Shown here piece after piece: positions 2,209 through 21,738 of a DNA stretch of 64,000 bases; the stretch's first letter is position 1; the number at the start of each line of letters is the position of its first letter. A program made the translations under genes and the position numbers. The DNA is from Candidatus Chloroploca sp. Khr17. Its GTDB lineage: Bacteria; Chloroflexota; Chloroflexia; Chloroflexales; Chloroflexaceae. The stretch lies in NCBI RefSeq assembly GCF_004138165.1, contig NZ_RYFF01000006.1:1-64000 (forward strand), in the 5' to 3' direction. The notes under the pieces were generated by a model, which was given only the letters and a program-made list of their open reading frames with translations, did not search any database and was not told the DNA's origin.

Positions 2209-2235
2209 TGAGGGTGTGCTTTCACATCTCACGGA

Positions 2236-2526: not shown

Positions 2527-2544
2527 AGCTCGTGTGAAACACGC

Positions 2545-3753: not shown

Positions 3754-3797
3754 CTTGTCTACTCCTGCTTGGAACACTACGTGCCCAATTTTACCAT

Positions 3798-3871
3798 GCT
3801 TCGTGGGGCTTGCCCCACGAAGCGATTCTTTTGGTTCGTGTTGGCGGCGAAGCCGCCAACACGAACCAAAA
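3798..3871. repeat. two adjacent perfect hairpins
   Basis: The first has 12-bp arms GCTTCGTGGGGC/GCCCCACGAAGC (3798-3823). The second has 20-bp arms at 3829-3848 and 3852-3871 around the trinucleotide GAA. They lie between the divergent aminotransferase and recD2 genes, so ordinary termination is not their obvious role. Confidence 0.8.
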
Positions 3872-3912
3872 TAGCCCCAACTCTTACCTTGAAGGTGCTA
3901 TATACTTAGGTT

Positions 3913-6087
3913 ATGCAAACCCTCGAAGGCACGCTTGAGCGCATTACGTATCAGAGTGAGGAGGACGGGTATACCGTCGCTCGTCTGACGCCCACTGGGC
4001 GTTCGTATCTCGTGACGATTGTTGGCAAGCTCGCCGGGGTGCGTCCCGGCGAGACGTTGCTGCTTGAGGGTGAGTGGCAGGCGCATCGTGACCATGGCCG
4101 CCAGTTTGCCGTGGTTACCTGTCGGACGCTGATGCCAGCCACGATTGATGGAATCAGGCGCTATCTGGGCAGTGGTCTGATCAAGGGCATCGGCCCCGCA
4201 ACGGCACGCCGCATCACCGAGACGTTTGGGCGCTATACGCTCGAGGTGCTTGATCGTGAGCCGGAACGCCTCGCTGAGGTGCCCGGCCTCGGGCGCAAGA
4301 AGGCTGAGTTGATCAAAATGGCCTGGCGTGAGCAGCAACGCATTAAAGAGGTGATGCTCTTTCTGCAAGAGATTGGCTTGCCTACGGGAATGGCTGTCCG
4401 TATCTATAAGCAGTACGGCGATGAGGCGATCCAGGTAGTACGCAATGAACCCTATCGCCTCGCCGATGAGGTCTATGGGATCGGGTTTTTGACCGCCGAT
4501 ACGATTGCGGCCTCGCTCGGCGTCGCCCACGATGATCCCCGCCGTATCGCCGCCGGGCTCCGCCATACGCTGAGTACGGCGACTGACGATGGACACACGT
4601 TTCTCGCCGCCGACGATCTGATCCGGCGGGCGACGGCGATGCTCGGTGCCGAGCAAATACTGGTTCACGAGGTGCTGACAACCCCGGCGCTCGCCCGCGA
4701 TCTCGAGGTGGTTGACCCCGCCGAGCCGACAACGCCCGTCTATCTCAAGCCGCTCGCGATGGCTGAGACCGGGGTTGCTGCGGCTCTCTTGCGCCAGCAA
4801 CGCGCCCCTTCACGGATGGCCGCTTTCTATCGCCAGGCGCACTGGGATCGCGTCTTTGCTCATCTCGCCGAACGCCATGATGTCGTGCTGACCCCGCGGC
4901 AGCAAGAGGCAGTGCAGATGGCCCTGACCACCAAGGTGAGCATTCTGACGGGCGGGCCGGGTACGGGCAAGACGACGACGCTGCGTACGGTTGTCCGTCT
5001 CGCACAGGCCCGTGGCTATCGCGTGCTGCTTGCTTCGCCAACTGGCCGTGCCGCCCGCCGTCTCAGCGAGACGACAGGTGCCGAGGCAAAGACGATCCAT
5101 CGGCTGCTTGAGTATGCGCCCGGTGGGGGCGGTTCCTTCCGCCGTTGCGCCGATTGGCCGCTCGAGTGTGACCTGCTCGTGGTTGATGAGGTGAGCATGC
5201 TCGATATTTTGCTGACCAACCATCTGCTCAAGGCGCTCCCTGCCCATGCCCACCTGTTGCTTGTTGGCGATGCGGATCAACTGCCGAGCGTTGGACCGGG
5301 GCGGGTATTGCGCGACCTGCTCGCGAGCCAGGCGGTTGCAAGCGTTCATCTCGATACGATCTTTCGTCAGGCCGCAGGCAGCGGGATCGCCTTCAATGCC
5401 CAGCGCATCAATCACGGCGAAATCCCGCAACTCAAGGGGCTTGACGATTTCTTCTTCTTCGCCGCACCTTCGCCTGAAGCCTGTGCCACACGGGTGGTGG
5501 AACTGGTGACCGAGCGCATCCCTGCCCGCTTTGGCCTCGATCCGCGCCGCGATATCCAGGTGCTCGCACCAACCCACAAAGGTGCCGCTGGTGTCACCGA
5601 ACTCAACCGGCGGCTCCAGGCGGCCCTCAACCCACCCGCGCCCGACCGCCCTGAAAAAAGCTTTGGGGCCACGATCTTTCGGCTCGGTGACCGGGTGATC
5701 CAGCAGCGCAACAACTACGAACTCGATGTCTACAATGGCGACATCGGCACGATTGCTGCCTTCGACCAGGCTGAACAACTGATCCGCGTGCAGTTTGAAG
5801 ATGGCCGTGTCGTCGCCTACGATGGCAGCCTGCTCGATGAACTAGCGCTCGCCTATGCGCTCAGCGTCCACAAGAGCCAAGGTGGCGAATATCCGGTGGT
5901 TGTGCTGCCGTTCCTAATGCAGCACCGCAGCATGCTCCAACGCAACCTGCTCTACACCGGCGTGACCAGGGCGCGTCAACTTGCCATCATCGTCGGCGAC
6001 CAGCGTGCCATTATCACCGCCGTCACCGACGAACGCACCCAGGAACGCAACAGCGGCCTGAGCGACAGGCTCATCGCGTTGCCATAA
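3913..6087 (+). CDS. recD2: RecD2-type 5'-3' DNA helicase (RecD/TraA family, SF1B)
   Basis: A 724-residue protein with the RecD2 layout: an N-terminal OB-like region, helix-hairpin-helix text (GIGPATARRITETFG around residues 93-107), then SF1 helicase motifs with Walker A GGPGTGKTTT at residue 347, the VVDEVSMLD Walker B, and a C-terminal UvrD-like segment (ALAYALSVHKSQGGEYP, YTGVTRARQLAIIVG). RecD2 enzymes act outside RecBCD in DNA repair and fork processing, unwinding 5' to 3'. No RecB or RecC is nearby. TATACT lies 6 nt before the ATG, so the message may be leaderless; no Shine-Dalgarno sequence is seen. Confidence 0.92.
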   Translation: MQTLEGTLERITYQSEEDGYTVARLTPTGRSYLVTIVGKLAGVRPGETLLLEGEWQAHRDHGRQFAVVTCRTLMPATIDGIRRYLGSGLIKGIGPATARRITETFGRYTLEVLDREPERLAEVPGLGRKKAELIKMAWREQQRIKEVMLFLQEIGLPTGMAVRIYKQYGDEAIQVVRNEPYRLADEVYGIGFLTADTIAASLGVAHDDPRRIAAGLRHTLSTATDDGHTFLAADDLIRRATAMLGAEQILVHEVLTTPALARDLEVVDPAEPTTPVYLKPLAMAETGVAAALLRQQRAPSRMAAFYRQAHWDRVFAHLAERHDVVLTPRQQEAVQMALTTKVSILTGGPGTGKTTTLRTVVRLAQARGYRVLLASPTGRAARRLSETTGAEAKTIHRLLEYAPGGGGSFRRCADWPLECDLLVVDEVSMLDILLTNHLLKALPAHAHLLLVGDADQLPSVGPGRVLRDLLASQAVASVHLDTIFRQAAGSGIAFNAQRINHGEIPQLKGLDDFFFFAAPSPEACATRVVELVTERIPARFGLDPRRDIQVLAPTHKGAAGVTELNRRLQAALNPPAPDRPEKSFGATIFRLGDRVIQQRNNYELDVYNGDIGTIAAFDQAEQLIRVQFEDGRVVAYDGSLLDELALAYALSVHKSQGGEYPVVVLPFLMQHRSMLQRNLLYTGVTRARQLAIIVGDQRAIITAVTDERTQERNSGLSDRLIALP

Positions 6088-6140
6088 GACCAATATTGTT
6101 GCGCAGGGCGCATGGTCGCTAGTAGTGTGTGAAGTAAGTT

Positions 6141-6270
6141 GTCTGGTGTCCTCAGCCGTCCACGAATTGGGGCCACGAATGAACGAAGAGCGTATGGAGC
6201 AGCCCGTATTCGTTTCTTCGTTCTCAGCATTTGTGGTCGGCGGCGCTACCGGGAAATGTAGTTGACAGAC
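6141..6270. mobile_element. MITE-like element, family B, copy 1
   Basis: A long imperfect palindrome of about 130 bp with outer arms GTCTG (6141) and CAGAC (6266). Inner paired blocks include GCCGTCCACGAA with its counterpart near 6230-6245, and CACGAATGAACGAA with TTCGTTTCTTCG. About 92 bp (6155-6246) match 30565-30657 in direct orientation. It occupies the gap after recD2 and contains no gene. Confidence 0.65.
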
Positions 6271-6370
6271 TAGTCACCCTGAGTGGCGCAAGGGGGCGGC
6301 CATGCCGGAGGGAAGACGCTTCGCTTGGCGCCGCATGACCATCATGCGCTACCATCAACGGTCATTGGCC

Positions 6371-7034
6371 TTATGCCGACGGGCATGTATCGGCCAACCA
6401 GGCCTGGAGATCATCCAGACTCGTGAAATCGAGCAACGTCTCGCTCAAATCCAGAAGGTGTTCGGGGCTCAGAGCGAGCACGTGATGCTGCACCGACTCC
6501 GGCAATGGGCCGCACCGCCGCGTCAGTTGGCGCAGCACGACTTCCTGGAGCGTCTGGTGACGTCCTTGCTCGACCCCCTCGGCGAACGCAAGCTCCTCAA
6601 TACTGGTCACAAACGTGTCCATCTGGGTCTCCTCCTGTTCAATCAGGCGCATTGTAGCACGAACCGTCGCGTGCATGCTGGGGTTGAGGCGCAGCATCTG
6701 ATCGAGCACACGATAGAGTCGGCGCATATCGGCGGCCCCGTAGCCGTTGCGGAAGAAGGCGCGAAAGCGGGCCAATTTGCGCCGCAGCCGCTCCGCAGGT
6801 TGCCCCCGGGTGGCCTGCGCGTCGCGGTGGATCAAAATGACCATCGCGATCGGATTGCGGCTGGCTTCGAGCATCGCCAAGTCAAGGTCGAGCAGTTTGA
6901 CCGTGGGAAAGTCGAGCCGCACCACGCACCCGGCCTCGGCGTAGCCAAACGAGCGCGGGTGCCACCCCGGTTGGTCGTCGCTCAAGACGGCGAGGCTAAT
7001 CACGGGGCGGCGTTCGCGGACAAAGATCTGGGCG
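6371..7034 (-). pseudogene. truncated Rpn-type PD-(D/E)XK nuclease gene
   Basis: The frame 6371-7003 encodes 210 residues very similar to the C-terminal two thirds of the intact gene at 10987-11952. The N-terminal nuclease core is missing. Comparison shows a 304-bp deletion: the sequence jumps at GGGCG (7030-7034) from the position equivalent to 11649-11653 to that equivalent to 11953-11957, and both carry GGGCG. The deletion removed the start codon and the putative catalytic residues and is not a multiple of three. Flanking non-coding text on both sides still matches the intact copy. Confidence 0.8.
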
Positions 7035-7073
7035 TTCCTCGGGCAAAACGGATGTTGCTGGTTCTACCGCACG

Positions 7074-7860
7074 AGGGGGGCGAAAGATACGGGGGCACGC
7101 GAAGACGCGAAGACGCGAAGAGGGATTGACGCAAAGGCGCAAAGGCGCATGTAGGGGCACGGCTTGCCCGTGCCCCTCGCCCGTGCCCCTCGCCCGTGCC
7201 CCTCGCCCGTGCCCCTCGCCCGTGCCCCGCCCGTTGCACGAACGCCCCTGTCTGATGCTGCGCCCCCGGTGATGCCACCCGTGCCCGATGACACGCGATC
7301 GCGGTGCGATGGCCGGCTGTAGGGGCGCAGCAGCCCATGGCCCGCCCGTTACCCAAACGCCCCTGCCATCGCTGCTGCGCCCCCGGTGATGCCACCCGTG
7401 CCCGATGACACGCGATCGCGGTGCGATGGCCGGATGTAGGGGCGCAGCAGCCCATGGCCCGCCCGTTGCGCAAACGCCCCTGTCATCGCTGCTGCGCCCA
7501 CCGGCCCCCGGTGACGCATCCCGCGCCTAATGGCAGGCCGATCGCGGCGAAATGGCCGATCCCGCACCCACGGCAGGGCGGACACGGGTGAATCATCGCG
7601 ATGGGGCTGATCCCGCACCCACGGCAGGGCGGGCACGGGTGAATCATCGCGATGGGGCCGATCCCGCACCCACGGCAGGGCGCAGCAGCGAACAGAGGTC
7701 GTCGTGGTTGACAGGGGCGCATGGGCTGCTGCGCCCCTACATGTGCGTAACACGGGGATGGATCACGGCGATGGGACGGATGCGTACGCGGGGTGGGGAT
7801 CATGTCCGGGGGCACGGCGGCGGGGCAGGGCAGGGCACGGCGGCGCCGTGCCCCTACATT
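7074..7860. repeat. GC-rich repeat array A
   Basis: No credible gene lies here. In order the stretch holds runs of CGCGAAGACGCGAAG and GCAAAGGCGCAAAGGCGC, five copies of the 13-mer GCCCGTGCCCCTC (7166-7230), modules of roughly 105-125 bp containing GTAGGGGCGCAGCAGCCC and CCCGCCCGTTGC, and an exact-period 51-bp direct repeat (starts 7558, 7609, 7660). Long open frames cross it on both strands, but their translations are low-complexity and frame-independent. Related arrays lie at 11990-12740 and 18185-19026. Confidence 0.85.
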
Positions 7861-7946
7861 GCGGTCTTGTATGCCTTGCAATTGCTCTGATTCTGGGTAT
7901 ACTCTTTGATCAGGATTACGCTTATTTTCAACCTTCGGTTTTCTTT

Positions 7947-10739
7947 ATGGCACAACTCTCGCCTCATGCTTTTGTCGCTAAGTGGCGTTCGGTAACGGTT
8001 AAGGAGCGTAGTGGTTACCAGGAACATTTCCTTGACCTCTGTCATCTGGTCGGCCATCCCACTCCTCTGGAGGATGATCCGGTCGGGACGCGCTATGCCT
8101 TTGAGGCTGGTGCTGGCAAGCAGCAGGGCGGCCAGGGTTGGGCTGATGTCTGGAAGCGGGGCTTCTTTGCCTGGGAGTACAAGGGCAAGCATGCCAATCT
8201 GGATCGTGCGTATCAGCAATTGTTGCAGTACCGCGAGAGTTTGCAGAATCCGCCGTTGCTTGTTGTCTCTGATATGGCGACGATCCAGATCCATACGAAT
8301 TTCACCAATACGGTGAAGCAGTTGACGGTGTTGACGCTGGATGATTTGCTGACGCCCGATGGGTTGCAGCGGCTGCGCGATCTCTTCTGGCATCCGGATG
8401 CATTTCGCGCTACGCAAACAACTGAATTGGTGACCCAGGAGGCGGCTCGTGAGTTTGCGCAATTGGCGACATTGCAACGACGCTATGGACACGATCCGCA
8501 GCGTACGGCCCATTTCTTGATCCGGCTGCTCTTCTGTCTGTTCGCTGAAGATAGCGGTCTCTTGCCGAACCAGGTCTTTGCCAAGCTGATCAAGGCGACG
8601 CGCAGCCGTGCGCCGCTCTTTACCGAGCAATTGGGGCAACTCTTCGCGGCGATGAACTGCGGGGGCTTTTTTGCGATGGAGGACATCCCGCATTTCGATG
8701 GTCGCCTCTTTGATAATGCCGAGGTGCTTCCGCTCGATAGCGAGAGTATGGCGATCCTCCAGCGCGTGAGCGAGCTCGACTGGTCAAGCATTGAGCCTTC
8801 GATTCTCGGCACGCTCTTTGAGCGTTCGCTTGACCCTGCCAAGCGTAGTCAGTTAGGGGCGCACTATACCAGTCGTGATGACATCCTGCTGATCATCGAG
8901 CCGGTGCTGATGGCGCCGCTGCGTCGTCGCTGGGCAGCGGTGGCGCAGCAGGCCCGCGAGCTGGCCGTGCAGCGCGATGCCGCCAGGGGCGCTCAGGCCA
9001 AACGCTTGCAGCATGAACTACAGGCGTTGTTGCAAGGCTTTGCTGGCGAAATTGCCGCCACGCGGGTGCTTGACCCGGCCTGTGGCTCGGGCAACTTTCT
9101 CTTCGTCGCGCTCAAACAGATGCTCGACCTGGAAAAAGAGGTCATCAGTTTGGCCCAGGATCTCGCCGCTGGTGGCTTTTTTCCTAGTGTCTCACCAGAG
9201 CAACTCTATGGCATCGAAATCAACGAATATGCCCACGAACTCGCTCAGGTCACCGTCTGGATCGGCTATATCCAGTGGCTGCGCGATAACGGCTTTGGGC
9301 AACCCGCCGAGCCGATCCTGAAACCGCTGGATACGATCCAACGCATGGATGCCATTCTTGCCTATGACGAGACCGGCCAGCCTGTTGAACCAGCCTGGCC
9401 CGCTGCCGACGTGATTGTCGGCAATCCGCCTTTTTTGGGGGGCAATAAGGTTCGCAAAGAACTCGGAGATGCGCAGATTGAGGCTATCTTCAAGCTCTAC
9501 GAGGGACGAGTGCCAGCTTTTGCCGATTTAGTCTGTTACTGGTTTGAGCGAGCACGCGCACTGATTGAGCAGGGCCAGCTTCAACGCGCAGGTTTGCTTG
9601 CGACGCAGGGAATTCGCGGTGGAGTTAATCGAAAAGTATTAGAACGAATCAAGGAGAGTGGCAACATTTTTATGGCCTGGAGTGACCGCAAGTGGTATCA
9701 GGAGGGTGCGGCTGTCCAAGTTTCCATGGTTGGTTTTGATGATGGCAAAGAGACCGAGCGTGCGCTGGATGGGATGAAGGTCAGTGCTATCAACGCTGAT
9801 CTCACATCATCGGTCAACCTTACTACGATCAAAAATCTTCGTGAAAATCATGGTATATGCTTCATGGGGCCATCGGCAAAAGCCCCCTTTGATATTGACG
9901 CTGATACCGCTGTTCACATGCTCAGCGCACCACTTAATCCAAACGGACGCCCCAATAGTGATGTCATCCGCCCTGTCGCTAGTGCGATCGATCTGGTGCA
10001 ACGTCATCGAGGCAAATGGACAATTGATTTTGGTCTGCTATCACAAGACGAAGCGGCGCTCTACGAAGCACCTTTTGAGTACGTGCGAACGCACGTCTAT
10101 CCAGTGCGTATGGATGCAAGCCGTATAAAGTATGCAGGTAATTGGTGGCAGTATGCAAGGCCAAGGGTTGAGATGCGTGAAGCGTTAAAGAAACATACCC
10201 GTTACATTGCCACCCCAGGCGTAGCTAAACATCGGCTTTTCGTGTGGGTTCAGCCCGAGGTGCTGTGCAACCAGGGCACGCTTGTTTTTGCGCGTTCTGA
10301 CGACTACTTTTTTGGCGTTTTACACTCCAGGGTGCATGAATTGTGGGCCAGGCGAACTGGTACCCAGCTCCGCGAAGCAGAAAGCGGCTTTCGCTACACC
10401 CCCACCACCACCTTCGAAACCTTCCCCTTGCCGTGGCCGCCAGGCCAAGAGCCCGAGGGCGATGTGCGCGTCGAAGCCATTGCCCGGGCCGCACGGCGGC
10501 TGGTCGAACTCCGCAACAACTGGCTCAACCCCGAGGGGGCGAGCGAAGCGGAATTAAAGCAGCGCACGCTGACGAACCTCTATAACCAGCGTCCCACATG
10601 GCTTGACAACGCGCACCGCACCCTCGACGAAGCGGTGATGTCCGCCTACGGCTGGCCGGTGGATCTGAGCGACGAAGCGATCCTGGCGCGTCTGCTGGAA
10701 CTGAACCTGGAACGCGCCGGCGATCGCGGCGACGGATAG
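7947..10739 (+). CDS. MmeI-like type IIL restriction-modification enzyme (fused endonuclease-methyltransferase)
   Basis: A 930-residue single-chain enzyme, close to MmeI in length. The N-terminal nuclease motif is D67-x9-E77-x-K79 (WADVWKRGFFAWEYKGK), the same spacing as in MmeI. A helical linker follows, then an N6-adenine methyltransferase with motif I DPACGSGNF (residues 376-384) and motif IV NPPF (493-496), and a C-terminal target-recognition region (about 640-900). In this family one polypeptide cuts and methylates DNA, and the recognition domain sets both specificities. The ATG at 7947 is chosen because the family similarity begins there; the frame is open further upstream only into repeat DNA. 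It stands alone between repeat tracts, as an exchangeable defence gene would. Confidence 0.85.
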   Translation: MAQLSPHAFVAKWRSVTVKERSGYQEHFLDLCHLVGHPTPLEDDPVGTRYAFEAGAGKQQGGQGWADVWKRGFFAWEYKGKHANLDRAYQQLLQYRESLQNPPLLVVSDMATIQIHTNFTNTVKQLTVLTLDDLLTPDGLQRLRDLFWHPDAFRATQTTELVTQEAAREFAQLATLQRRYGHDPQRTAHFLIRLLFCLFAEDSGLLPNQVFAKLIKATRSRAPLFTEQLGQLFAAMNCGGFFAMEDIPHFDGRLFDNAEVLPLDSESMAILQRVSELDWSSIEPSILGTLFERSLDPAKRSQLGAHYTSRDDILLIIEPVLMAPLRRRWAAVAQQARELAVQRDAARGAQAKRLQHELQALLQGFAGEIAATRVLDPACGSGNFLFVALKQMLDLEKEVISLAQDLAAGGFFPSVSPEQLYGIEINEYAHELAQVTVWIGYIQWLRDNGFGQPAEPILKPLDTIQRMDAILAYDETGQPVEPAWPAADVIVGNPPFLGGNKVRKELGDAQIEAIFKLYEGRVPAFADLVCYWFERARALIEQGQLQRAGLLATQGIRGGVNRKVLERIKESGNIFMAWSDRKWYQEGAAVQVSMVGFDDGKETERALDGMKVSAINADLTSSVNLTTIKNLRENHGICFMGPSAKAPFDIDADTAVHMLSAPLNPNGRPNSDVIRPVASAIDLVQRHRGKWTIDFGLLSQDEAALYEAPFEYVRTHVYPVRMDASRIKYAGNWWQYARPRVEMREALKKHTRYIATPGVAKHRLFVWVQPEVLCNQGTLVFARSDDYFFGVLHSRVHELWARRTGTQLREAESGFRYTPTTTFETFPLPWPPGQEPEGDVRVEAIARAARRLVELRNNWLNPEGASEAELKQRTLTNLYNQRPTWLDNAHRTLDEAVMSAYGWPVDLSDEAILARLLELNLERAGDRGDG

Positions 10740-10986: not shown

Positions 10987-11952
10987 TTATGCCGACGCGC
11001 ACGTACGCGCCAACCATGCCTGGAGTTCATCCATGCTGGTGAAATCGAGCAGCGTCTCGCTCAACTCCAGGAGTTGTTCGGGACTCAGGGTGAGGAGTTG
11101 ATGCTGCACTGACTCCGGCACTGGGCCGCACCGCCGAATCAGTTGGCGCAGCACGACTTCCTGGAGCGTCTGGTGACGCCCTTGCTCGATGCCCTCGGCG
11201 AACGCAAGCTCCTCAATACTGGTGACAAAGGTGTCGTCCATCTGGGTCTCCTCCTGTTCAATCAGGCGCATTGTAGCACGAACCGTCGTGTGCATGCTGG
11301 GGTCGAGGCGCAGCAGTTGATCGAGCACGCGATAGAGCCGACGCATGTCGGTGGCTGCGTAGCCGTTGCGGAAGAAGGCCCGAAAACGGGCTAATTTGCG
11401 CCGGAGCCGTTCCTCGGGTTGCCCGCGGGTCGCCTGCGCGTCGCGGTGGATCAAAATGACCATCGCGATGGGGTTGTCGCTTGCTTCGAGCATCGCCACG
11501 TCAAGCTCCAAGAGTTTGACCGTGGGGAAGTCGAGCCGCACCACGCACCCGGCCTCGGCGTAGCCAAAGGAGCGCGGGTGCCACCCCGGTTGGTCGTCGC
11601 TCAAGACGGCGAGGCTGATCACGGGGCGGCGTTCGCGGACGAAGATCTGGGCGTGGTAACAGAACATGCGCTCGGCAAAGCTAGGGTCGCGCTGGGACTG
11701 GACTTCCAGGTGGATGAAGATCGTGCGTGGGGTGCCATCGTGAGCCTGCACCTGCACAAGTTTGTCGATGCGATGCTTGCCGCGATTGACATCCGGGTCG
11801 ATCTGGTGCAGTTCGGTATCCCGGAAGATGACCGGTTGCTGCCAGTCCACGGTGCGCCAGACCAGCGGGAAGAGCAGTTCGAGCAACGGAGCGACGTAGT
11901 GATCGAGCGCATATTTCCACGCGCCATCAAAATCAGCCGGCGGAAGTTCCAT
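10987..11952 (-). CDS. Rpn-type PD-(D/E)XK nuclease / transposase-like protein
   Basis: A 321-residue protein starting at ATG 11952 with GAGGA about 7 bp upstream. The N-terminal half has the PD-(D/E)XK-like pattern of the Rpn (recombination-promoting nuclease) group: ELHQIDPDVNRGKHRIDKLVQV, then IFIHLEVQSQRDPSFAERM, with the Glu-x-Gln in place of Glu-x-Lys common in this family. The C-terminal half is helical and includes an EELAFAEGIEQGRHQTLQEVV segment. Characterised Rpn proteins are DNA endonucleases that promote RecA-independent recombination. A second copy at 6371-7034 has lost its N-terminal core. Confidence 0.75.
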   Translation of the reverse strand: MELPPADFDGAWKYALDHYVAPLLELLFPLVWRTVDWQQPVIFRDTELHQIDPDVNRGKHRIDKLVQVQAHDGTPRTIFIHLEVQSQRDPSFAERMFCYHAQIFVRERRPVISLAVLSDDQPGWHPRSFGYAEAGCVVRLDFPTVKLLELDVAMLEASDNPIAMVILIHRDAQATRGQPEERLRRKLARFRAFFRNGYAATDMRRLYRVLDQLLRLDPSMHTTVRATMRLIEQEETQMDDTFVTSIEELAFAEGIEQGRHQTLQEVVLRQLIRRCGPVPESVQHQLLTLSPEQLLELSETLLDFTSMDELQAWLARTCASA

Positions 11953-11989: not shown

Positions 11990-12740
11990 CCGCACGAAAG
12001 GGGCGAAAGATACGGGGGCACGCGAAGGCGCAAAGGCGCGAAGGGGGATTGACGCAAAGGCGCGAAGGCGCAGAGGGGGCGAAAGATACGGGGGCACGCG
12101 AAGACGCGAAGACGCGAAGGGGGCTTGACGCAAAGGCGCGAAGGCGCAAAGGTTTTGATCGTGCATGGAGGGGCACGGCGGTGTCGTGTCCCGCCCGTTG
12201 CCCAAACGCCCCTGTCTGCTGCTGCGCCCCCGGCCCCCCGGTGAGGCGCACCCGCGCCCGATGACAGGCCGATCGCGACGAAATAGCCGGGCGTAGGGGC
12301 ACGGCTCGCCCGTGCCCTGCCCGTTGCCCGAACGCCCCTGTCTGCTGCTGCGCCCCCGGCCCCCGTTGCCACCACCCGCGCCTAATGACAGGCCGATCGC
12401 GGCGAAATGGCCGATCCCACACCCACGGCAGGACGGACACGGGCGGATCATCGCGCTGGGGTCGATCCCGCACCCACGGCGGGGCGCAGCAGCAAATAGA
12501 GGTCGTTGTGGTTGACGCAGGGCGCATGGGCTGCTGCGCCCCTACGGGTGCGTAACGCGGGGGTGGATCACGGCGCTGGGATGGATGCGTTGCCGGGCGT
12601 AGGGGCGCAGCAGCCCATGGCCCGCCCGTTGGCCGAACGCCCCTGTAATAGCTGCTGCGCCCCCGGTCGCCCGGTGACGACACCCGCGCCTGTGATGGGG
12701 CCGATCCCTCAGCGAGGGGCAGGGCTATGTTGCATAACCC
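11990..12740. repeat. GC-rich repeat array B
   Basis: The stretch repeats the elements of array A: two blocks of ACGCGAAG/GCAAAGGCGCGAAGGCGC text (12010-12155), then modules with GCCCGTTGCCCAAACGCCCC, CTGCTGCGCCCCCGGC, GATCCCGCACCCACGGC and TAGGGGCGCAGCAGCCCATG. Frames across it are low-complexity. It lies between the Rpn-type gene and the DGR template repeat. Confidence 0.85.
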
Positions 12741-12904
12741 TGCCCCTCACTCACGTGCCCCATCCCGACGTTCGACCGGTTGAGGTCTACTGGCAGGGCG
12801 AAGGGCGGTTTGTCTTTGGCTGTATCGCCGTGCCATACAGCCAGGGACTGACCTGTCATTCTCCTGCCGAGGCCACACCGCCACCCGTAAGCACCGGAAT
12901 CTGC

Positions 12905-13030
12905 TAGGCCCCGACAACTGGCAGAATGATTGGCGACCCGCAACCCGTTGTTGTTGTTGCGGTTGCGCGGGTTGTTGTTGTTGCGGTACGAAGCCCGGAC
13001 GTTCCACGGCAGAAGACCCTCCTGCCGCGC
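12905..13030 (-). other. DGR template repeat (TR); aligned core 12923-13001
   Basis: On the minus strand the region carries CGC-(AAC)4-CCGCGC-AAC-CGC-(AAC)4, which would encode RNNNNPRNRNNNNG. The 79-bp core (12923-13001) aligns without gaps to 14669-14747 at the 3' end of the target gene. Eleven positions differ and all eleven are adenines in the TR; none of the 57 non-adenine positions differ. This is the adenine-specific signature of mutagenic retrohoming. The TR lies 33 bp downstream of avd, a usual DGR position, and is probably transcribed as an RNA rather than translated. Confidence 0.93.
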
Positions 13031-13062
13031 CACCTGGTGGTGGGTCGGTCAGCCCCCCTATC

Positions 13063-13434
13063 TCAAGACCCGGAGGTCGGAGACAGCTCTTCACCACGAC
13101 GGAGCCAGCCGCCTAAGAGGCGGCCAAGTTCGCTGCTGCGTCGGGCACCTTCTTCATATTGTTTGAATGAGAGCATGTGCAAATCACGGGCGAGCCGTAG
13201 CAAGAGCCGCAGCTCGGCCAGGGTGATATCCGCTTCGCGTAACAATGGCGTCGGGTTGTGGCCCTGCTTGGCTGCGGCAATGAGTTGCCGTTGCAAGAGA
13301 AAGGCAGCCTCTGGCAGGCGGCGGCCCAGGCCTGTGCGATGTTCGCGTGGCATTGCGGCGGCCAGCGGAAGCAGCCAGCGCAAGAGGTCATAGGTCTGGC
13401 TAAAGATCGGCGACTGACTGGAATGGCTTGTCAT
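13063..13434 (-). CDS. avd: DGR accessory variability determinant (Avd-family four-helix protein)
   Basis: A 123-residue, mainly helical, Arg/Leu-rich protein. The segment DLHMLSFKQYEEGARRSSELGRLLGGWL (given here in two parts, DLHMLSFKQYEE and the following GRLLGGWL) is typical of the Avd/23S-intervening-like four-helix-bundle family. Avd forms a pentameric barrel that binds the RT and the TR RNA and is required for mutagenic cDNA synthesis in characterised DGRs. Its ATG at 13434 overlaps the RT stop codon by 4 bp (ATGA), so translation is probably coupled. The TR follows immediately downstream. Confidence 0.9.
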   Translation of the reverse strand: MTSHSSQSPIFSQTYDLLRWLLPLAAAMPREHRTGLGRRLPEAAFLLQRQLIAAAKQGHNPTPLLREADITLAELRLLLRLARDLHMLSFKQYEEGARRSSELGRLLGGWLRRGEELSPTSGS

Positions 13435-14504
13435 CGGTGCTGATCCTTGCCAAATGGATGCGTGCGTAACAGGCGCGAACGGAGGCGATACGTGTCAGCG
13501 TGTTTGGCGTGGGCAATCCAGCTTCGTAACGAGGCCTGGATGGAAGCAGCCGCGAGATGACCCGCCCGATACCCGCGCTGTTGTCGGCGCAAGCGGCGCA
13601 CAAAGCGTTGCACACCGCTGCGGCGCAACCGCCGATGATCACGGAACAACCGATAGCCGACAAACTCGACCCCTTCGTCGGCGGCATAGAGGCGCGTTTT
13701 GACCGGGTGCAGGGTTAGCCGCAACTGGGCGGTGTGCTCGTGAAGGAGCGCAAGCGCCTGGTGCAAGGTGGGCTTGTCATCGGCAAAGACGAGCATGTCG
13801 TCACAGTAGCGGACATGCGGCAGCCGCAATTCACGTTGCAACAGTGTATCGATCGGATTAAGGTAGACATTGGCCCAGAACTGACTGGTCAGGTTGCCAA
13901 TGGGCAAGCCGCGTGGACGTAGGGCCGCCAGCAGATCATCCCCTGGAAAGAGTCGGAGCGTATATTCATTGGCGAGGATGCCATCGCCGCTTGCCATAAT
14001 GCGCTGGCACAAGGCGAGGGTGGGCTTGCAGGCAAGATGGCGTTCGAGCAAGCTGGAGAGGATCGCGTGGTCAATCGACGGAAAAAACTGGGCAATATCA
14101 GCTTTCAGCAGATACTTGTGGCGGCGTAGCAAGATCTGCGCCTGGTCAGCGGCACGATGGGTGCCCTTTTTGCGGCGACATGCATACGAGGCATTCGAGA
14201 AGCGTGCTTCAAAGATTGGCTCGATGACGCGCACCAGCGCGTGATGCACCACGCGATCGCGGAAGGGGGCAGCGCTGATCTTGCGCCGTTTGGGTTCGCG
14301 GATGTAAAACGAACGATAACGCCCGGGTTGGTAACGCCCGGCGAGCAACTCGCGCTCGAGTTGCAGCAGATTCGGCTCAAGATGGCGCTCGAAAGCGGCC
14401 ACATCAGGGCGACGGCGCTTGCCGCGCTGGGCTGCCTCCCACGCGGCAAAGAGGTTTTCAAAGCTCGCGATCTGCGGAAAGAGGTTGTTGAAACGCTTGG
14501 GCAT
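13431..14504 (-). CDS. DGR reverse transcriptase
   Basis: A 357-residue RT with AAGGGG about 8 bp before the ATG at 14504. RT motifs are in order: RT3 KADIAQFFPSIDHAIL (catalytic D136), RT4 GLPIGNLTSQFWANVYLNP (residues 199-217) and RT5 RYCDDMLVFADD (YCDD at 233-236). The [LIV]GxxxSQ form of RT4 separates DGR RTs from group II intron and retron RTs. The second position of the YxDD box is Cys, which is uncommon. No maturase or endonuclease domain follows, and the C-terminus is a short basic thumb. The gene sits between the target and avd, and with the TR forms a complete DGR. Confidence 0.93.
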   Translation of the reverse strand: MPKRFNNLFPQIASFENLFAAWEAAQRGKRRRPDVAAFERHLEPNLLQLERELLAGRYQPGRYRSFYIREPKRRKISAAPFRDRVVHHALVRVIEPIFEARFSNASYACRRKKGTHRAADQAQILLRRHKYLLKADIAQFFPSIDHAILSSLLERHLACKPTLALCQRIMASGDGILANEYTLRLFPGDDLLAALRPRGLPIGNLTSQFWANVYLNPIDTLLQRELRLPHVRYCDDMLVFADDKPTLHQALALLHEHTAQLRLTLHPVKTRLYAADEGVEFVGYRLFRDHRRLRRSGVQRFVRRLRRQQRGYRAGHLAAASIQASLRSWIAHAKHADTYRLRSRLLRTHPFGKDQHR

Positions 14505-14621
14505 CGCCCGCCCCTTGCAAAAAAAATCGCGGATGCGCGCTACGCGCGGGTGGGGAAGGAACCCTTCCCCACACCCCATCCCCTGGGTACACCATCCCCC
14601 TGATTGTACCAGACAAGCACG

Positions 14622-14649
14622 CCTGATACTACAGCAAACAGCAATCAGG
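14622..14649. other. small inverted repeat just after the variable repeat
   Basis: CCTGAT (14622-14627) pairs with ATCAGG (14644-14649) across a 16-nt spacer, overlapping the target stop codon. Some DGRs have a hairpin or cruciform downstream of the variable repeat that aids retrohoming. This stem is short and could be chance. Confidence 0.3.
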
Positions 14650-17600
14650 ATTCAGAACCGGGCAACGGAGAATGACTGGCGACCCGCAACCCGAAGTCGA
14701 AGTTGCGGTTGCGCGGGTTGAGGTAGACGCGGTACGAAGCCCGGACGCTGTTTGCGCTACTATAAAATGCCCCGCCGCGTAATCTACGTGGTTCGTCTTG
14801 CTCTAGATAGGTCTCGCACCATTCGTCTTCGACCGCATATGGATAGCCGCGACCATAAATGGTTGCGCACCATTCATAGACATTGCCAGCCATGTCGTGA
14901 ACCCCGTAGGCGCTTGTGTCGGCAGGGAAGCTGCCAACTGGTGATCGTCGGCCAAGCTCTAGCTCTCTGCTATTGCAGCGCCCGGGTTCCCAGGTATTGC
15001 CCCAGGGCCAGATGCGTCCGTCGGGGCCGCGGGCGGCTTTTTCCCATTCGGCCTCGGTGGGTAGGCGAAACTCAATGCCGACTCTGGCGGTTAACCAGCG
15101 GCAGTAGGCCACGGCTTCGAACCAGTTGACTTCGACGACAGGCAGATTGTCATCACCGGTTGCCGGCCCCTCCCATCGCTTGGTTGTGGTTGTCCGCCGG
15201 TTGTTGCGCCATGGCAGCAGGCCACCAAGTCGCTCAAGCATAGTCGTGCTGCCATGCAACCACTGCCAACCTGCGGTCGTCCAGTAGGCCCGGTTGGTAT
15301 AGCCATCGTCGTTGGCAAAAACACGCCACTGCGCGACGGTGACCGGATAAGTGCCGATCCAGTAGTCAGGCAGATCCAGGCGATGTTGGGGCTTCTCATC
15401 ACTGTCGGCCATGGTATCCGCATCGCTGCTGCCCATCAGGAAGGGGCCAGCGGGGATGTGGGTCATCTGCGGGCACCAGTGTTCACCACTGAAACGCGGA
15501 TCGCCACCGGCAAGCGCGTACCCAGCCGCGAGGCGGGGCCGATAGTCTGGATCGTCTGTGGCAAGCGTGCCAAGCAGGGCCCGCAGGGAGGCGTCGGTTA
15601 CCGCAGGCATGCGTTCTGCCTCCCGCGAAGACCGACGCTGCGCAGGTGGTCTGATGAGCTTGCGTTCGAGCATGAGTTCGATGATCCGGGCGCGTACCGG
15701 GCCGTGGATGGCAGTACGCACGAGGTGGCGTAGTTCCGCCTGCGCAGGGATCATCTGGAGTTCTTCAAGGTGGGCTAACGCAGCAGTGGCTTCGGCTTCA
15801 CTCGCATCTGGTTCGGCAAAAGCGAGGGCGTGCAAGCGTGATCGCGTGGCTTCGCGTAGCTCCTCCAGGCTGCTTTTGTTCGGACGTTCCAGCAGCACCG
15901 CACCGGCGAGCAGGGTACGGTCGTGACCCGGCGCGGCGAGCACCTGGCGAAGCACCGGATTGGGATCATGGCTCGCCGCATAGAGCAGCAACACCTCGCG
16001 CCAGGCGGGACGATCCCAGCGGTTGAGGATGATCGACTGGCGGGCTTCGGTCGCTTCGGTAGCCGCAGCGCGGGCCGCCAAATACTCCTGAAACGTCAGG
16101 TGCGCAAACTCCATCCAGAGATCAGTACGACTCCCCTTCACAAAGCCCTTTTCGAGCAGCACCCCTCCCCGTTGACTAAGGTATCTGCGCCACGTATCAG
16201 CGGAACGCACCGCAGCGACCTGACGTTCTTCTTCTTTCCGGTTAGGCTCAAACCCTCCCAGATTGGGCAGCAGCAACGCAAGCTTGGCGTTGACCTCACT
16301 GCTGCGCACCATCAGATGCGCCCGCGCATCACTGCTTGTGGCACCCTGTTGAAACATCATCCACGCCAACTCACGCAGCAGATAGAGCCGATCCTGGAGG
16401 CTCAGTTCCGCTAGGCCATCCTGGGTCTCATGCACCCGACGTTTGCGCTGCTCCCAGGCACCTGCCATCAAACCAATCGCCGCTTCGTAGAGCGTATGAC
16501 GCTCTTCGGGCAACTTCAGGCGTTGGCCCTGATAGTCATAATGGAGCGCAACGGTCAGCGAGAGCAAGAGCGGATTGCGACTCAGGCGGCGCAAACCAGG
16601 ATTGCCGGGCAAGCGCCGAATGAGATCCTGGGCTTCGCTTTCAGGTTGCCAATCGAGGACATCGAGACTGCCACTGCCTCCCAACTTACGGCTTTCACTG
16701 GCAGCAATGGCCGCATAACGTGCATGGATAAAGCGGGCGGTCTGTTCATCATCAAGCTCATCGAGCTGGCGTTGAACAAAGCCCTCGCTATCCAATTGAC
16801 CTTCATAGCCGACAAAGCGTGACGTCACCACCACTCGATTAGGCCGTTGGCGCGGGCCAGCGGGTAACGCCGCAATCAACTGGCTGAGCCAGGTGCGCAT
16901 ATCAATATCTCGTTGCCCATCATCATGATGTGCTCCGCCAGCCGCCCGCACCTCATCGAAGGCATCAACCAAGATAAGGCAACCACCCTGTTTGAGCCGT
17001 TCGGCAAAGAAGGGGCCATCGCACCCCGGTAACGGTTTCGCGAATAAATCGGCAAGCTTCTGCGCATAGACCTGCAACAAATCCTTGTCACTGGTTTGCA
17101 GATCCAGATCACGCATTGGAATATAGAGTGGGAACGGGCAATCAGGCCAACCGTAGAGGCTACGAACCCGCAGGGTCTGTGACCTGGTTCCCAGGCGTTC
17201 CAGGGCACAGATGACCGCAAGATGGCGCATCAAGGTTGTCTTGCCACTACCAGGATGCCCCAGTAGCAACAGCCGTGGATGTGCCCAGATCTCGGCGCCG
17301 GGCGTACCAGGATCGGCAATGCACATACTACGCCGTCGCCACCAGGTCAGCAAATCTTCCAGCACATCGTCTTTACCGACAAGCCAATTGTGTAGCCAGC
17401 GGGCGGCCATGAACCAGCCCCCCGCGCCAACGATCGCCACCGTGACCCGCCACCAATCGAGCCGCCAACCACCCCCAGGCTCGCGCAGCAACCAGGCGCA
17501 CAGGGCAAGCAAAACGCCCAGCAACAGCCCCTGGGCAAGCGCCCAGAGGCCCCAATAGACAACGCGCTCGAACACCTGGCGCACCCTACCTGGTGCCTCA

Positions 17601-18106
17601 GCCGACCGAGGCCCCCGTAGGCGACGCCCATCGCGCAAACCCACCTGGCGCAGTACAGCTTCTTCCGCATCGACTGCAAGCTCTTCATGCGCGACTGAAC
17701 TGCCTCCTGTCTGCTCTAATCCATTGGGACGATAGGGACTCAGGGACAACGGACTAAACGCCTCAATGAGACGCATATCGCTCCGCTGACCGGCTGCCAG
17801 CAAATCGGGCGTCTTGCCATAGACCAGCCGAAGTGCCTCCAAATAGTCCGCCTCTACCCGCCGCCGAGGGAAGAGCAAACGCACCTTTGCCACCAGCCAG
17901 TTGCGCACGAGAAAGAGCACGACGGCAAGCAACAGCAAAAGCAACCCGACGGCGATCAAAAAAGGCAGAAAGAATGGCTTGGCAAGTTGCGCATTCAACC
18001 AGGGCTGCACCTGAGGCAGCGCCAGCAAGATGCCAATCGTACCAACGATAGTAACAAACAAGGTGATCAGAATGTAGGTCTCTTCTTTGCGTGTCATATG
18101 ATGCAT
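14645..18106 (-). CDS. DGR target: membrane-anchored NACHT ATPase with C-terminal FGE-sulfatase (C-type-lectin-like) domain
   Basis: A 1153-residue protein. Hydrophobic segments lie at about 11-31, 45-68, 183-207 and 220-240. A NACHT-type STAND ATPase follows, with Walker A GHPGSGKTT (283-291) and Walker B LILVDAFDEV (377-386), then a helical region (about 550-870). The C-terminal FGE-sulfatase/SUMF domain (about 878-1153) has FLMGS, EVNWFEAVAYCRWL, RLPTEAEWEKAARG and MAGNVYEWC. The last 33 codons before the stop contain the variable repeat. In known DGRs this fold displays variable residues as a ligand-binding surface; the NACHT part suggests an NTP-dependent signalling or conflict protein (inference). 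The ATG at 18106 (or 18097) is chosen because upstream text is repeat DNA. No strong Shine-Dalgarno sequence is seen. Confidence 0.88.
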   Translation of the reverse strand: MHHMTRKEETYILITLFVTIVGTIGILLALPQVQPWLNAQLAKPFFLPFLIAVGLLLLLLAVVLFLVRNWLVAKVRLLFPRRRVEADYLEALRLVYGKTPDLLAAGQRSDMRLIEAFSPLSLSPYRPNGLEQTGGSSVAHEELAVDAEEAVLRQVGLRDGRRLRGPRSAEAPGRVRQVFERVVYWGLWALAQGLLLGVLLALCAWLLREPGGGWRLDWWRVTVAIVGAGGWFMAARWLHNWLVGKDDVLEDLLTWWRRRSMCIADPGTPGAEIWAHPRLLLLGHPGSGKTTLMRHLAVICALERLGTRSQTLRVRSLYGWPDCPFPLYIPMRDLDLQTSDKDLLQVYAQKLADLFAKPLPGCDGPFFAERLKQGGCLILVDAFDEVRAAGGAHHDDGQRDIDMRTWLSQLIAALPAGPRQRPNRVVVTSRFVGYEGQLDSEGFVQRQLDELDDEQTARFIHARYAAIAASESRKLGGSGSLDVLDWQPESEAQDLIRRLPGNPGLRRLSRNPLLLSLTVALHYDYQGQRLKLPEERHTLYEAAIGLMAGAWEQRKRRVHETQDGLAELSLQDRLYLLRELAWMMFQQGATSSDARAHLMVRSSEVNAKLALLLPNLGGFEPNRKEEERQVAAVRSADTWRRYLSQRGGVLLEKGFVKGSRTDLWMEFAHLTFQEYLAARAAATEATEARQSIILNRWDRPAWREVLLLYAASHDPNPVLRQVLAAPGHDRTLLAGAVLLERPNKSSLEELREATRSRLHALAFAEPDASEAEATAALAHLEELQMIPAQAELRHLVRTAIHGPVRARIIELMLERKLIRPPAQRRSSREAERMPAVTDASLRALLGTLATDDPDYRPRLAAGYALAGGDPRFSGEHWCPQMTHIPAGPFLMGSSDADTMADSDEKPQHRLDLPDYWIGTYPVTVAQWRVFANDDGYTNRAYWTTAGWQWLHGSTTMLERLGGLLPWRNNRRTTTTKRWEGPATGDDNLPVVEVNWFEAVAYCRWLTARVGIEFRLPTEAEWEKAARGPDGRIWPWGNTWEPGRCNSRELELGRRSPVGSFPADTSAYGVHDMAGNVYEWCATIYGRGYPYAVEDEWCETYLEQDEPRRLRGGAFYSSANSVRASYRVYLNPRNRNFDFGLRVASHSPLPGSES
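14669..14747 (-). other. DGR variable repeat (VR) in the target gene
   Basis: This 79-bp stretch aligns with the TR core at 12923-13001. TR AAC codons have become GTC, TAC and CTC (one AAC unchanged) and TTC, GAC and TTC, and one AAT has become AGT. The encoded residues change from NNNN to VYLN and from NNN to FDF. The VR ends 24 bp before the end of the stop codon. After the aligned block TR and VR diverge, so the initiation-of-mutagenic-homology element is imperfect (GTTGCCCGG in the VR against GTTGTCGGGG in the TR). Confidence 0.93.
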
Positions 18107-18184: not shown

Positions 18185-19026
18185 TGTGGGGCTGTACCGC
18201 ACGAAAGGGGGAAAGATACGGGGGCACGCGAAGACGCGAAGACGCGAAGGGGGCTTGACGCAAAGGCGCGAAGGCGCAAAGGTTTTGATTGTGCATGGAG
18301 GGACACGGCGGTGTCGTGTCCCGCCCGTTGCCCGAATGCCCCTGTCTGCTGCGGCGCCCCCCGGCCCCCCGTTGCCACCACCCGCGCCTAATGGCAGGCC
18401 AATCGCGGCGAAATGGCCGGGTGTAGGGGCGCAGCAGCGCATGGCCCGCCCGTTGCCCAAACGCCCCTGTCCGCTGCGGCGCCCCCCGGCCCCCCGGTGC
18501 CACCACCCGCGCCTAATGGCAGGCCGATCGCGGCGAAATGGCCGGGTGTAGGGGCGTAGCAGCGCATGGCCCGCCCGTTGCCCAAACGCCCCTGTCATCG
18601 CTGCTGCGCCCCCCGGCCCCCCGGTGCCACCACCCGCGCCCGATGGCAGGCCAATCGCGGCGAAATGGCCGGGTGTAGGGGCGCAGCAGCGCATGGCCCG
18701 CCCGTTGCCCAAAAGCCCCTGTCATCGCTGCTGCGCCCCCGGCACCCCGGTGCCACCACCCGTGCCTGTGATGTGGTCAATTGTGTCGGGGCCGATCGCT
18801 CACCCACGGTAGGGCGCAGCAGCAAACAGAGGTCGTTGTGGTTGACGAGGGGCGCAGCAGCAAACAGGATGCGTGGTGGTTGACGAGGGGCGCATGGGCT
18901 GCTGCGCCCCTACGGGTGCGTCATGCGGGGGTGGATCACGACGCTGGGATGGGCTGCATATGCGCTGCAATGGATGCGGCACGGCGGTCGGGGCACGGCG
19001 GTCGGGGCACGGCGGTGCCGTGCCCC
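18185..19026. repeat. GC-rich repeat array C
   Basis: After one ACGCGAAG/GGCGCAAAGG block (18220-18290), a module of about 125 bp recurs with starts at 18320, 18445, 18570 and 18697. Each carries CCCGCCCGTTGCCC, CACCCGCGCC and GAAATGGCCGGGTGTAGGGG. Shorter variants then run to the left end of the IS. The far end is the palindrome GGGGCACGGC-GGT-GCCGTGCCCC. Long frames on both strands are artefacts of composition. This explains the gap between the DGR target and the IS. Confidence 0.88.
19012..19026. repeat. target-site duplication, left copy
   Basis: GCGGTGCCGTGCCCC directly abuts the left IS end and recurs at 20451-20465. It forms the right part of a 23-bp palindrome in array C. Fifteen bp is longer than usual for IS4-type elements, so part of the match may come from the repetitive target. 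Confidence 0.7.
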
Positions 19027-20450
19027 ATACGCATTAACTTACGGCCCACTCCAAGAGATTCGGGTTGAGCAGTAATTGGTAGGCATTCGGTTCTTTCGTG
19101 CGGGGCGTCTGCCCTTCCACCTTGGATATCTCCTCCATGAGCAGGCGCACGACCTTGCGCAACGTGCGGGGATGATGCATGGCCTGTGCCAGAAGCTTCG
19201 CAAACTCGCGTACTTTCTTGGCCACTTTCGGCAGACTCCGATCCGGTTTCTGCCAACATCCCGTGAGGAGCAGCCAGTGTTGCATGATCATCCCGATAAA
19301 CTTTGCATAGATCTCGGTCAACACCCGCGCGTCGCGTTGACCGCGCGACTCATCCACCTTGCCATGGCTCTTCCACAATTTAAACAACAACTCAATTTGC
19401 CAGCGTAAACGCATCAACACCAATGCTTCGGTCAAGGTCACCATATCGGTCGGCATGTTCGTGACGAAGACCGTCCACCCACACCACGCCTCCTGCTCAG
19501 CGCTTGCCGTCCGTCCTTTCTTGCGCATCTCGCGATGCAACCGCCGCAGCCGTTGTGCGGCCGTTTGTTCCGGGACACGCACGACCAGCAAGCGACAGGC
19601 GATCCGTTGCGCCACGCCGATCTGTACGGCAATATCCAACGTTGTGTGCGCATCCGAGGCTTCCTGACGCAGCATCGTCAGCAGATCCACCCGCACACCG
19701 TCACAAAAGATCGCCGTATTCGGCTTCAAGCGATTGATCCAGAATCGCTTCTCCCGGGTATCCAGCGCCAGTTCATCGAGCTGGAAGTAACTCAGATCAC
19801 GCAAGGAGAGCGACCCGGGCCCGGGACGACGCCGAAAGGCCACCGCACGATCCGAGGCTCGTCCGTCCTGAACCAGCGGCCCTTCCAGCATTCCCGTGCG
19901 CATTTCCAAGCGCACCTGGGCTTTCAGCGCCGCCTGCCCAGCGCCATTCCGTCCGCCACAGCCCCGGAACCGCTGCGCCAACGACGCAGGCAAACTGATC
20001 GTCGTACTATCCTGCAGCAACACCTCCGAAAAGCGAGCCAACAACGGAATCGCCACGGGGTCTGCAGCCACCAGGGTGCCCATGGCGTGCTGCAACACCC
20101 GTTCCATACAGGTCACCAACGCGTCCGTGAAGCGCTTGCAGAGCGCGGCTTTCGAGATCGTGATCCCCAGCACCTTCGCCATCGCCACCAAGTCGTCCAG
20201 CGTCGCATCGGGATTCGCCAACCAACCAAACACGAGCGTTTGCACCAAATGAGCCCCATGCATCACCCGTTCCCGTTGAATGACCCCGCACGCCCGGGCA
20301 ACGGTTTTCGCGACCTCGTCCAACACCTCACGCATGGCTGTGGCAACATGTGGTATGCTCGTCATAAGAAACGCTCCTTTGGCATGGCTTCGGAGAAAGC
20401 ATCATGATGCCACATGTGAGCGTTTCTTGCTTGCTTAAGTTAATGCGTAT
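19027..20450 (-). mobile_element. complete IS4-type insertion sequence
   Basis: A 1424-bp element with 15-bp perfect terminal inverted repeats (ATACGCATTAACTTA at 19027 and its reverse complement ending at 20450), flanked by the direct repeat GCGGTGCCGTGCCCC. One intact transposase gene fills it, and its stop codon lies inside the left terminal repeat. The intact ends and coding frame suggest recent insertion. Confidence 0.88.
19034..20365 (-). CDS. IS4-family DDE transposase
   Basis: A 443-residue transposase. DDE elements: first Asp in LLQDSTTISLP, second in LRDLSYFQLDEL, and the Y-(2)-R-(3)-E-(6)-K-like C-terminal signature around LRWQIELLFKLWKSHGK. The enzyme would cut and join the 15-bp terminal repeats. 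AAAGGAG lies 8 bp before the ATG at 20365. The frame is intact, so the element may be active. The IS4 subgroup cannot be assigned by eye. Confidence 0.9.
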   Translation of the reverse strand: MTSIPHVATAMREVLDEVAKTVARACGVIQRERVMHGAHLVQTLVFGWLANPDATLDDLVAMAKVLGITISKAALCKRFTDALVTCMERVLQHAMGTLVAADPVAIPLLARFSEVLLQDSTTISLPASLAQRFRGCGGRNGAGQAALKAQVRLEMRTGMLEGPLVQDGRASDRAVAFRRRPGPGSLSLRDLSYFQLDELALDTREKRFWINRLKPNTAIFCDGVRVDLLTMLRQEASDAHTTLDIAVQIGVAQRIACRLLVVRVPEQTAAQRLRRLHREMRKKGRTASAEQEAWCGWTVFVTNMPTDMVTLTEALVLMRLRWQIELLFKLWKSHGKVDESRGQRDARVLTEIYAKFIGMIMQHWLLLTGCWQKPDRSLPKVAKKVREFAKLLAQAMHHPRTLRKVVRLLMEEISKVEGQTPRTKEPNAYQLLLNPNLLEWAVS

Positions 20451-21539: not shown

Positions 21540-21738
21540 TATAGCAGTCCTAACAGGTTTGTGTCTACGGAGTGCCGGCTTATGGTCTTCCAGAAATTAA
21601 TCCGGTATAGCCCGCGAAGGCGGGCTTCGCTTCCCCGAGCCGAGGGCTTCAGCCCCACGGCATCAGGCGCATAGCGGATCATTTACTGAAAGTCCATAAG
21701 CCGGCACTCCTGTTTACAATCCAAACAGAACTGCTATA
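21540..21738. mobile_element. MITE-like element, family A, copy 2, nested in a second palindrome
   Basis: The core at 21569-21710 (142 bp) begins GGAGTGCCGGCTTATGG and ends CCATAAGCCGGCACTCC. Its interior (GAAGCGAAGCCCGCC and GGGGCTGAAGCCCTCGGCTC in reverse complement) matches copy 1 at 2341-2508 in inverted orientation. Outside it, TATAGCAGT (21540-21548) pairs with ACTGCTATA (21730-21738), and GGTTTG pairs with CAAAC. That outer palindrome is not shared with copy 1, which suggests one element inserted in another. It fills the gap between the divergent GT2 and flavoprotein genes. Confidence 0.7.

What the first reader, a model, noticed from the sequence alone, without database searches (positions are those of the whole stretch)
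12923..14747. Complete diversity-generating retroelement with pure adenine mutagenesis signature
The TR core (12923-13001) and VR (14669-14747) align over 79 bp without gaps. Eleven positions differ, and all are among the 22 adenines of the TR sense strand; 0 of 57 other positions differ. RT with the DGR-type GxxxSQ motif and an Avd gene lie between them with coupled translation. This is strong evidence for past and perhaps present targeted hypermutation.
Basis: partly seen in the sequence, partly recalled or inferred. Interest (0 to 1): 0.92.

Follow-up and report, generated by a model that had tools for sequence, protein, structure and literature searches.

The report
Retroelement hypermutating bacterial immune-like sensors
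A filamentous photosynthetic bacterium carries an intact gene-mutating cassette (a diversity-generating retroelement) that rewrites the tips of at least four immune-like sensor proteins from one template; it is a clear new example of a machinery already described in multicellular bacteria, not a new kind of system.

Summary
In detail: TR (12923-13001, -) and VR (14669-14747, -) align over 79 bp without gaps, and all 11 differences fall on the 22 TR adenines (p = 8e-8). RT (13431-14507) and Avd (13063-13434) lie between them. It is a complete DGR. Genome-wide, the same TR matches three further VRs on other contigs, and one 36-nt motif follows exactly these four VRs and occurs nowhere else. Targets share a C-terminal FGE/C-type-lectin domain on different front ends: NACHT, or AAA/STAND-like, one of these beside a MoxR-vWA-iSTAND conflict system. 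In three Chloroploca genomes, 15 VRs differ from TR at 187/360 adenine cells versus 22/855 others. One orthologous target pair differs at 13/24 adenine sites, 1/57 other VR sites and 4/300 flanking sites. Correction: the last three TR adenines never vary; the A-to-G near the 3' end is fixed in all 15 VRs, so it is not mutagenesis, while one further mutated adenine lies just upstream. TR sits in a covarying RNA whose spacer pairs with the TR 3' end; no Rfam family matches. The RT is truncated or not found in the two sister genomes. Present activity is unproven. The class, including STAND/MoxR targets and trans VRs, is published (Dore 2024).

The parts
14645..18106 (-). cis target gene: about 1153 aa, at least 3 hydrophobic segments, NACHT NTPase (Walker A GHPGSGKT, Walker B LILVDAFDE), C-terminal FGE-sulfatase/C-type-lectin domain carrying the VR
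   Evidence: ATG 18106 preferred to TTG 18712
14669..14749 (-). variable repeat (VR), 81 nt, aa 1120-1146 of the 1153-aa product
   Evidence: 12 of 24 TR adenines differ, 0 of 57 other positions
14639..14674 (-). IMH-like block at the VR 3' end and downstream (CATTCTCCGTTGCCCGGTTCTGAATCCTGATTGCTG)
   Evidence: four occurrences in the whole genome (up to 3 mismatches allowed), exactly behind the four VRs
13431..14507 (-). DGR reverse transcriptase, 358 aa (ORF can be extended to 14579)
13063..13434 (-). Avd, 123 aa, overlapping the RT stop (ATGA)
   Evidence: PF22296 E 1e-17; NF033474 79.8 bits against cut-off 80; BPP-1 Avd structures 4dwl and 8ub7_B
12923..13003 (-). template repeat (TR), 81 nt, 24 A, ten AAC codons; 21 adenines mutagenised, last three not
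   Evidence: within a 97-nt stretch identical in Ca. Chloroploca mongolica
12775..13051 (-). conserved structured DGR RNA: 5' hairpins, TR and spacer
   Evidence: 82 pairs, 17 with changes on both sides (slid controls 0-5)
13005..13029 (-). hairpin directly 5' of TR (CGCGGCAGGAGGGTCTTCTGCCGTG)
   Evidence: helix 3, two pairs changed on both sides, 100% of cells paired
12856..12861 (-). spacer GAATGA that pairs with TCATTC at the TR 3' end (12924-12929)
   Evidence: helix 7, one pair changed on both sides (A-U to G-C in L044)
12812..12848 (-). spacer stem-loop
   Evidence: helix 10, six pairs changed on both sides

Best explanation
A chromosomal DGR of the kind used by multicellular bacteria. 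The Avd-TR-spacer transcript folds so that the TR 3' end is held against the spacer (supported by covariation). The RT-Avd complex copies TR into cDNA from within its 3' junction, so the last three adenines are not mutagenised, and misreads upstream adenines (copying mechanism inferred from BPP-1; A-specificity shown). The cDNA replaces the VR at genes that carry the shared IMH-like block: the cis NACHT-FGE gene and at least three genes elsewhere (pattern shown, trans transfer inferred). Because the template codons are AAC, mutation there gives only NNC codons and never a stop. The VR forms the ligand-binding part of an FGE/C-type-lectin fold (fold predicted here, surface role of the VR inferred from TvpA and Mtd). 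Diversified sensors feed NACHT and AAA/STAND-type NTPase switches, one beside a MoxR-vWA-iSTAND system, most likely sensing invaders and triggering a defensive or suicidal response (inferred, untested).
For: Adenine-only TR/VR differences; four VRs in the genome with p 4e-8, 4e-8, 2e-11 and 3e-5; shared 36-nt motif only at these VRs; RT, Avd and target homology; RT tree; orthologue pair 13/24 A versus 1/57 non-A versus 4/300 flank; RNA covariation; FGE model pLDDT 88, TvpA Z 25.7 with rmsd 2.9 over 223 residues and Mtd Z 14.3 with rmsd 3.3 over 156; MoxR-like AAA, vWA, EAD2-iSTAND and EAD2-CHAT genes by the C142 target; the same class in PMC10907252.
Against: No within-population or time-series data, so present activity is not shown. 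One remote VR (C142) has 4 non-A differences, and 22 of 855 non-A cells differ overall. The RT is truncated in Ca. C. mongolica and no cognate RT or TR was found in the second sister genome, so the system can be lost. No defence phenotype has been shown; PADLOC gives no hit for the targets tested.
Confidence: 0.93

Rival explanations
1. A fossil: the DGR diversified these genes in the past but no longer works in this strain; the VRs are now frozen and drifting.
For: RT lacks its N-terminal part in M50-1, where a GC-rich repeat array takes its place, and no cognate RT is found in G014, whose contig runs into the same kind of array at the RT start; C142 VR has 4 non-A changes; no population data.
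Against: Here RT, Avd and TR are intact; the TR stretch is identical over 97 nt between species whose cis target gene differs by about 7%; three of four VRs have no non-A difference.
Confidence: 0.25
2. VR differences arise by homologous recombination or gene conversion among paralogous targets rather than by retrohoming.
For: Many paralogous FGE targets; the segment just 5' of the VR also differs strongly between orthologues (12/30) and resembles a neighbouring paralogue in M50-1.
Against: Recombination alone cannot make differences from the TR that fall only on its adenines; flanks of the a_C114/m_C89b pair are almost unchanged.
Confidence: 0.03
3. The RT is a group II intron, retron or DRT enzyme and the repeat pair is incidental.
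For: NCBIfam's best RT hit is group_II_RT_mat, though below its cut-off (147 of 300 bits).
Against: BPP-1 DGR RT is by far the best solved match, an Avd gene overlaps the RT stop, and the genome's own group II RTs fall outside.
Confidence: 0.01

Closest known systems
Clade-5 DGRs of multicellular bacteria (Thiohalocapsa PB-PSB1 and relatives; PMC10907252)
   Same: Several DGRs per genome, NACHT/STAND and MoxR-associated targets with C-terminal FGE/CLec VR, trans-used VRs, repeat arrays replacing the RT; that paper includes filamentous Chloroflexi and cites Ca. Chloroploca
   Different: Here one TR matches VRs of both a NACHT target and a target in a MoxR-vWA-iSTAND locus; a covariation-supported DGR RNA is described; truncation or absence of the RT is seen across sister species rather than within aggregates
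Bordetella phage BPP-1 DGR (mtd-avd-TR-brt)
   Same: RT, Avd, adenine mutagenesis, spacer RNA 3' of TR, sequence block at the VR 3' end, C-type-lectin VR fold
   Different: Gene order VR-RT-Avd-TR instead of VR-avd-TR-brt; host chromosome; four targets; no stem-loop behind the VRs was seen to be shared by all (sequences, read by eye)
Cyanobacterial DGRs with remote variable proteins (PMC7517822)
   Same: Remote VRs at the 3' ends of CLec genes spread through the genome
   Different: Other phylum; front-end domains here are NACHT and AAA/STAND-like
MoxR-vWA iSTAND ternary conflict systems (PMC7159879)
   Same: C142 target neighbours: MoxR-like AAA, vWA, EAD2-iSTAND, EAD2-CHAT
   Different: Only a remote target of this DGR lies there; the window's own target is a NACHT protein

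Membership tests
Diversity-generating retroelement | RT of the DGR type | tested here: met
   8ub7 E 4e-59; IGNLTSQ and YCDD; tree
Diversity-generating retroelement | TR/VR pair differing at TR adenines | tested here: met
   11/11 (12/12 over 81 nt), 15 VRs in three genomes
Diversity-generating retroelement | accessory protein Avd | tested here: met
   PF22296 65 bits (cut-off 40); NF033474 79.8 (cut-off 80); 4dwl
Diversity-generating retroelement | VR in a C-type-lectin-fold target C terminus | tested here: met
   PF03781; TvpA Z 25.7, Mtd Z 14.3
Diversity-generating retroelement | IMH at VR 3' end distinct from TR 3' end | tested here: met
   fixed A-to-G difference and VR-only 36-nt block; function not tested
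Diversity-generating retroelement | RT-dependent transfer of mutations from TR to VR | not testable with these tools
   needs experiment or population sequencing
Clade 5 / STAND-type DGR of multicellular bacteria | RT phylogenetic placement in clade 5 (5D) | tested here: inconclusive
   grouped with Chloroflexota and, more distantly, some Chromatiaceae, Thiothrix and Contendobacter RTs; published reference RTs not at hand
Clade 5 / STAND-type DGR of multicellular bacteria | NACHT/STAND plus FGE target | tested here: met
   PF05729 31 bits (cut-off 26.7) and PF03781
Group II intron RT | RT groups with group II intron RTs | tested here: not met
   separated from the genome's own group II RTs in the tree, and weaker PDB match
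Retron RT | RT groups with retron RTs | tested here: inconclusive
   only a family score, far below cut-off (56 of 235 bits); no retron RT was in the tree

The most novel reading that the evidence does not exclude
A single chromosomal DGR acts in trans as a shared diversifier of sensors for two mechanistically different conflict systems (NACHT and MoxR-vWA-iSTAND), using a conserved structured RNA whose spacer base-pairs with the TR 3' end to set the non-mutated boundary; sister species keep diversified VRs although their RT is truncated or not found.
Probability: 0.55. Interest if true: 0.6.

Novelty: new member of a known kind. Interest (0 to 1): 0.42.

Why it matters
It gives a clean case, with same-genus genomes for comparison, of one template matching variable repeats in several immune-like sensors, and an RNA structure model that can be tested. 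An intact RT here and a truncated or undetected RT in two sister genomes offers a natural experiment on whether VR diversity needs the cognate RT and how DGRs are lost.

Tried and rejected
First FGE model with 14 close sequences was poor (pLDDT 46) and was not used; a 52-sequence alignment gave pLDDT 88. No stem-loop shared by all VRs was noticed downstream of the VRs (read by eye from the sequences; not scanned by program). Rfam has no matching family for the TR/spacer region (only a sub-threshold microRNA hit). PADLOC has no model matching the three target proteins tested. C47 carries a third RT-Avd pair but no TR/VR pair was found by self-comparison of the 12-kb stretch. The careful RT tree did not finish; the quick tree was used. 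TTG start at 18712 for the target rejected because it reads through intergenic repeats. One search failed on a wrong frame and was replaced.

Full report
What was checked. The window is contig C148:1-64000 of a 6.38-Mb genome in the same genus as G015, which is very probably Ca. Chloroploca mongolica M50-1: contig C89 of G015 and NZ_SIJK02000035.1 have the same length (55,994) and carry the same RT remnant. The species of the window itself is not named. TR and VR align over 79 bp with 11 differences, all at the 22 TR adenines (p 8e-8). RT, Avd and their ATGA overlap are as described.

What surrounds it. On the - strand the order is target, RT, Avd, TR. The target is a probably membrane-anchored NACHT protein (at least three hydrophobic segments, Walker A and B) with a C-terminal FGE-sulfatase domain. 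A predicted model of that domain (pLDDT 88) matches formylglycine-generating enzymes, Treponema TvpA (Z 25.7, rmsd 2.9, 223 residues) and Mtd of BPP-1 (Z 14.3, rmsd 3.3, 156 residues). The VR stretch itself contains no cysteine, so an FGE-like enzyme role resting on cysteines there is unlikely (inference from knowledge of FGE). On which side of the membrane the sensor lies was not settled, because the number of membrane spans is uncertain.

One template, four variable repeats. A search of the genome with the TR finds the TR itself and four VRs, at 86, 86, 82 and 79% identity; the next match drops to 33 bits. Their differences fall on adenines: 12/0, 12/0, 12/4 and 16/0 (A/non-A, 81-nt comparison). 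A 36-nt block at the VR 3' end occurs exactly four times in the genome, behind these VRs. Remote targets: C149, an AAA-FGE protein; C142, an AAA-FGE protein next to MoxR-like AAA, vWA, EAD2-iSTAND and EAD2-CHAT genes, the make-up of the iSTAND ternary conflict systems (PMC7159879); C141, only a gene tail at a contig end, beside a type II methylase.

Comparison across species. Over 15 VRs of three genomes, 187 of 360 adenine cells and 22 of 855 other cells differ from TR (cells are not independent of each other). The orthologous targets G014:C114 and G015:C89b differ at 13/24 adenine sites, 1/57 other VR sites, 4/300 upstream and 0/36 downstream sites. Substitutions at the other adenines are A>T 99, A>G 58, A>C 15; selection may contribute to this spectrum.

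RNA. The stretch from near the Avd end through TR and about 150 nt beyond is conserved in eight genomes. The predicted structure has 82 pairs, 17 with changes on both sides (slid controls 0 to 5; 96% of cells paired). The TR 3' TCATTC pairs with GAATGA in the spacer, with one compensatory change. A model of the spacer finds weak matches in many other Chloroflexota DGR loci; by my reading of the coordinates most of the non-seed matches lie about 470-910 nt behind the RT end on the RT strand. The covariation measures of the enlarged alignment exceed all controls, though that alignment is fitted to the structure and holds a few off-target rows. Rfam has no matching family. In BPP-1 a spacer RNA is known to recruit RT-Avd and to prime cDNA inside the TR 3' junction (PMC12875486), so the inferred function is analogous.

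RT identity. The best solved match is the BPP-1 DGR RT (4e-59; group II 3e-16). In the tree the host's group II RTs separate at 99% and the window RT groups with Oscillochloridaceae and other Chloroflexales relatives (quick tree, and the BPP-1 RT sits on a long branch).

Loss in relatives. In M50-1 about the first 132 residues of the 358-aa RT are missing and a GC-rich repeat array stands there; in G014 no cognate TR or RT was found, and the contig of one target runs into such an array at the RT start. Draft assembly at repeats could exaggerate this. Dore et al. report repeat arrays replacing DGR RTs in PB-PSB1 (PMC10907252).

Comparison with the literature. Dore et al. 2024 describe this lineage of DGRs in multicellular bacteria, filamentous Chloroflexi among them, with NACHT/STAND and MoxR-associated FGE/CLec targets and targets diversified in trans. 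Remote targets are also known from cyanobacteria (PMC7517822).

Verdict. A real, complete DGR, member of a published class. New here: the set of remote targets of one TR, the covarying RNA, and the truncation or absence of the RT in sister genomes. Whether it is active now, and what the sensors bind, is not known.

Noticed in passing
G000:C123 (L037) 515-623 and 2388-2496, -: Second complete DGR in the same genome: TR/VR 109 nt, 11 mismatches all at TR adenines, with its own RT, Avd and FGE target.
   Followed up: partly
G000:C47 (L038) 1627-7995, -: Third RT-Avd pair; a group II intron ORF (3489-5282) lies between the RT and the FGE target; no TR found.
   Followed up: partly
window 14750-14779, -: The 30 nt just 5' of the VR differ at 12 of 30 sites between orthologues (flank 7-9%), not explained by the present TR; perhaps an older, longer TR or gene conversion from a neighbouring target.
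   Followed up: partly
window 7250-7740, 12000-12700, 18317-18910: GC-rich repeat arrays (units near 50, 76, 117 and 125 nt; GGGGCGCAGCAGC 16 times against 0.01 expected) lie on both sides of the DGR; similar arrays stand at the RT start in sister genomes.
   Followed up: partly
window 7704-10739 (+): Type IIG restriction-modification enzyme (PDLC03627 E 2e-266) close to the DGR; an IS4-family transposase lies at 19034-20365.
   Followed up: no
window 2420-2443 (+) and 21608-21631 (-): Two isolated matches to CRISPR-DR28 repeats of unclear meaning.
   Followed up: no
window 10987-11950 (-): Rpn/DUF4351-type protein next to the DGR; a similar ORF lies at 6371-7003.
   Followed up: no
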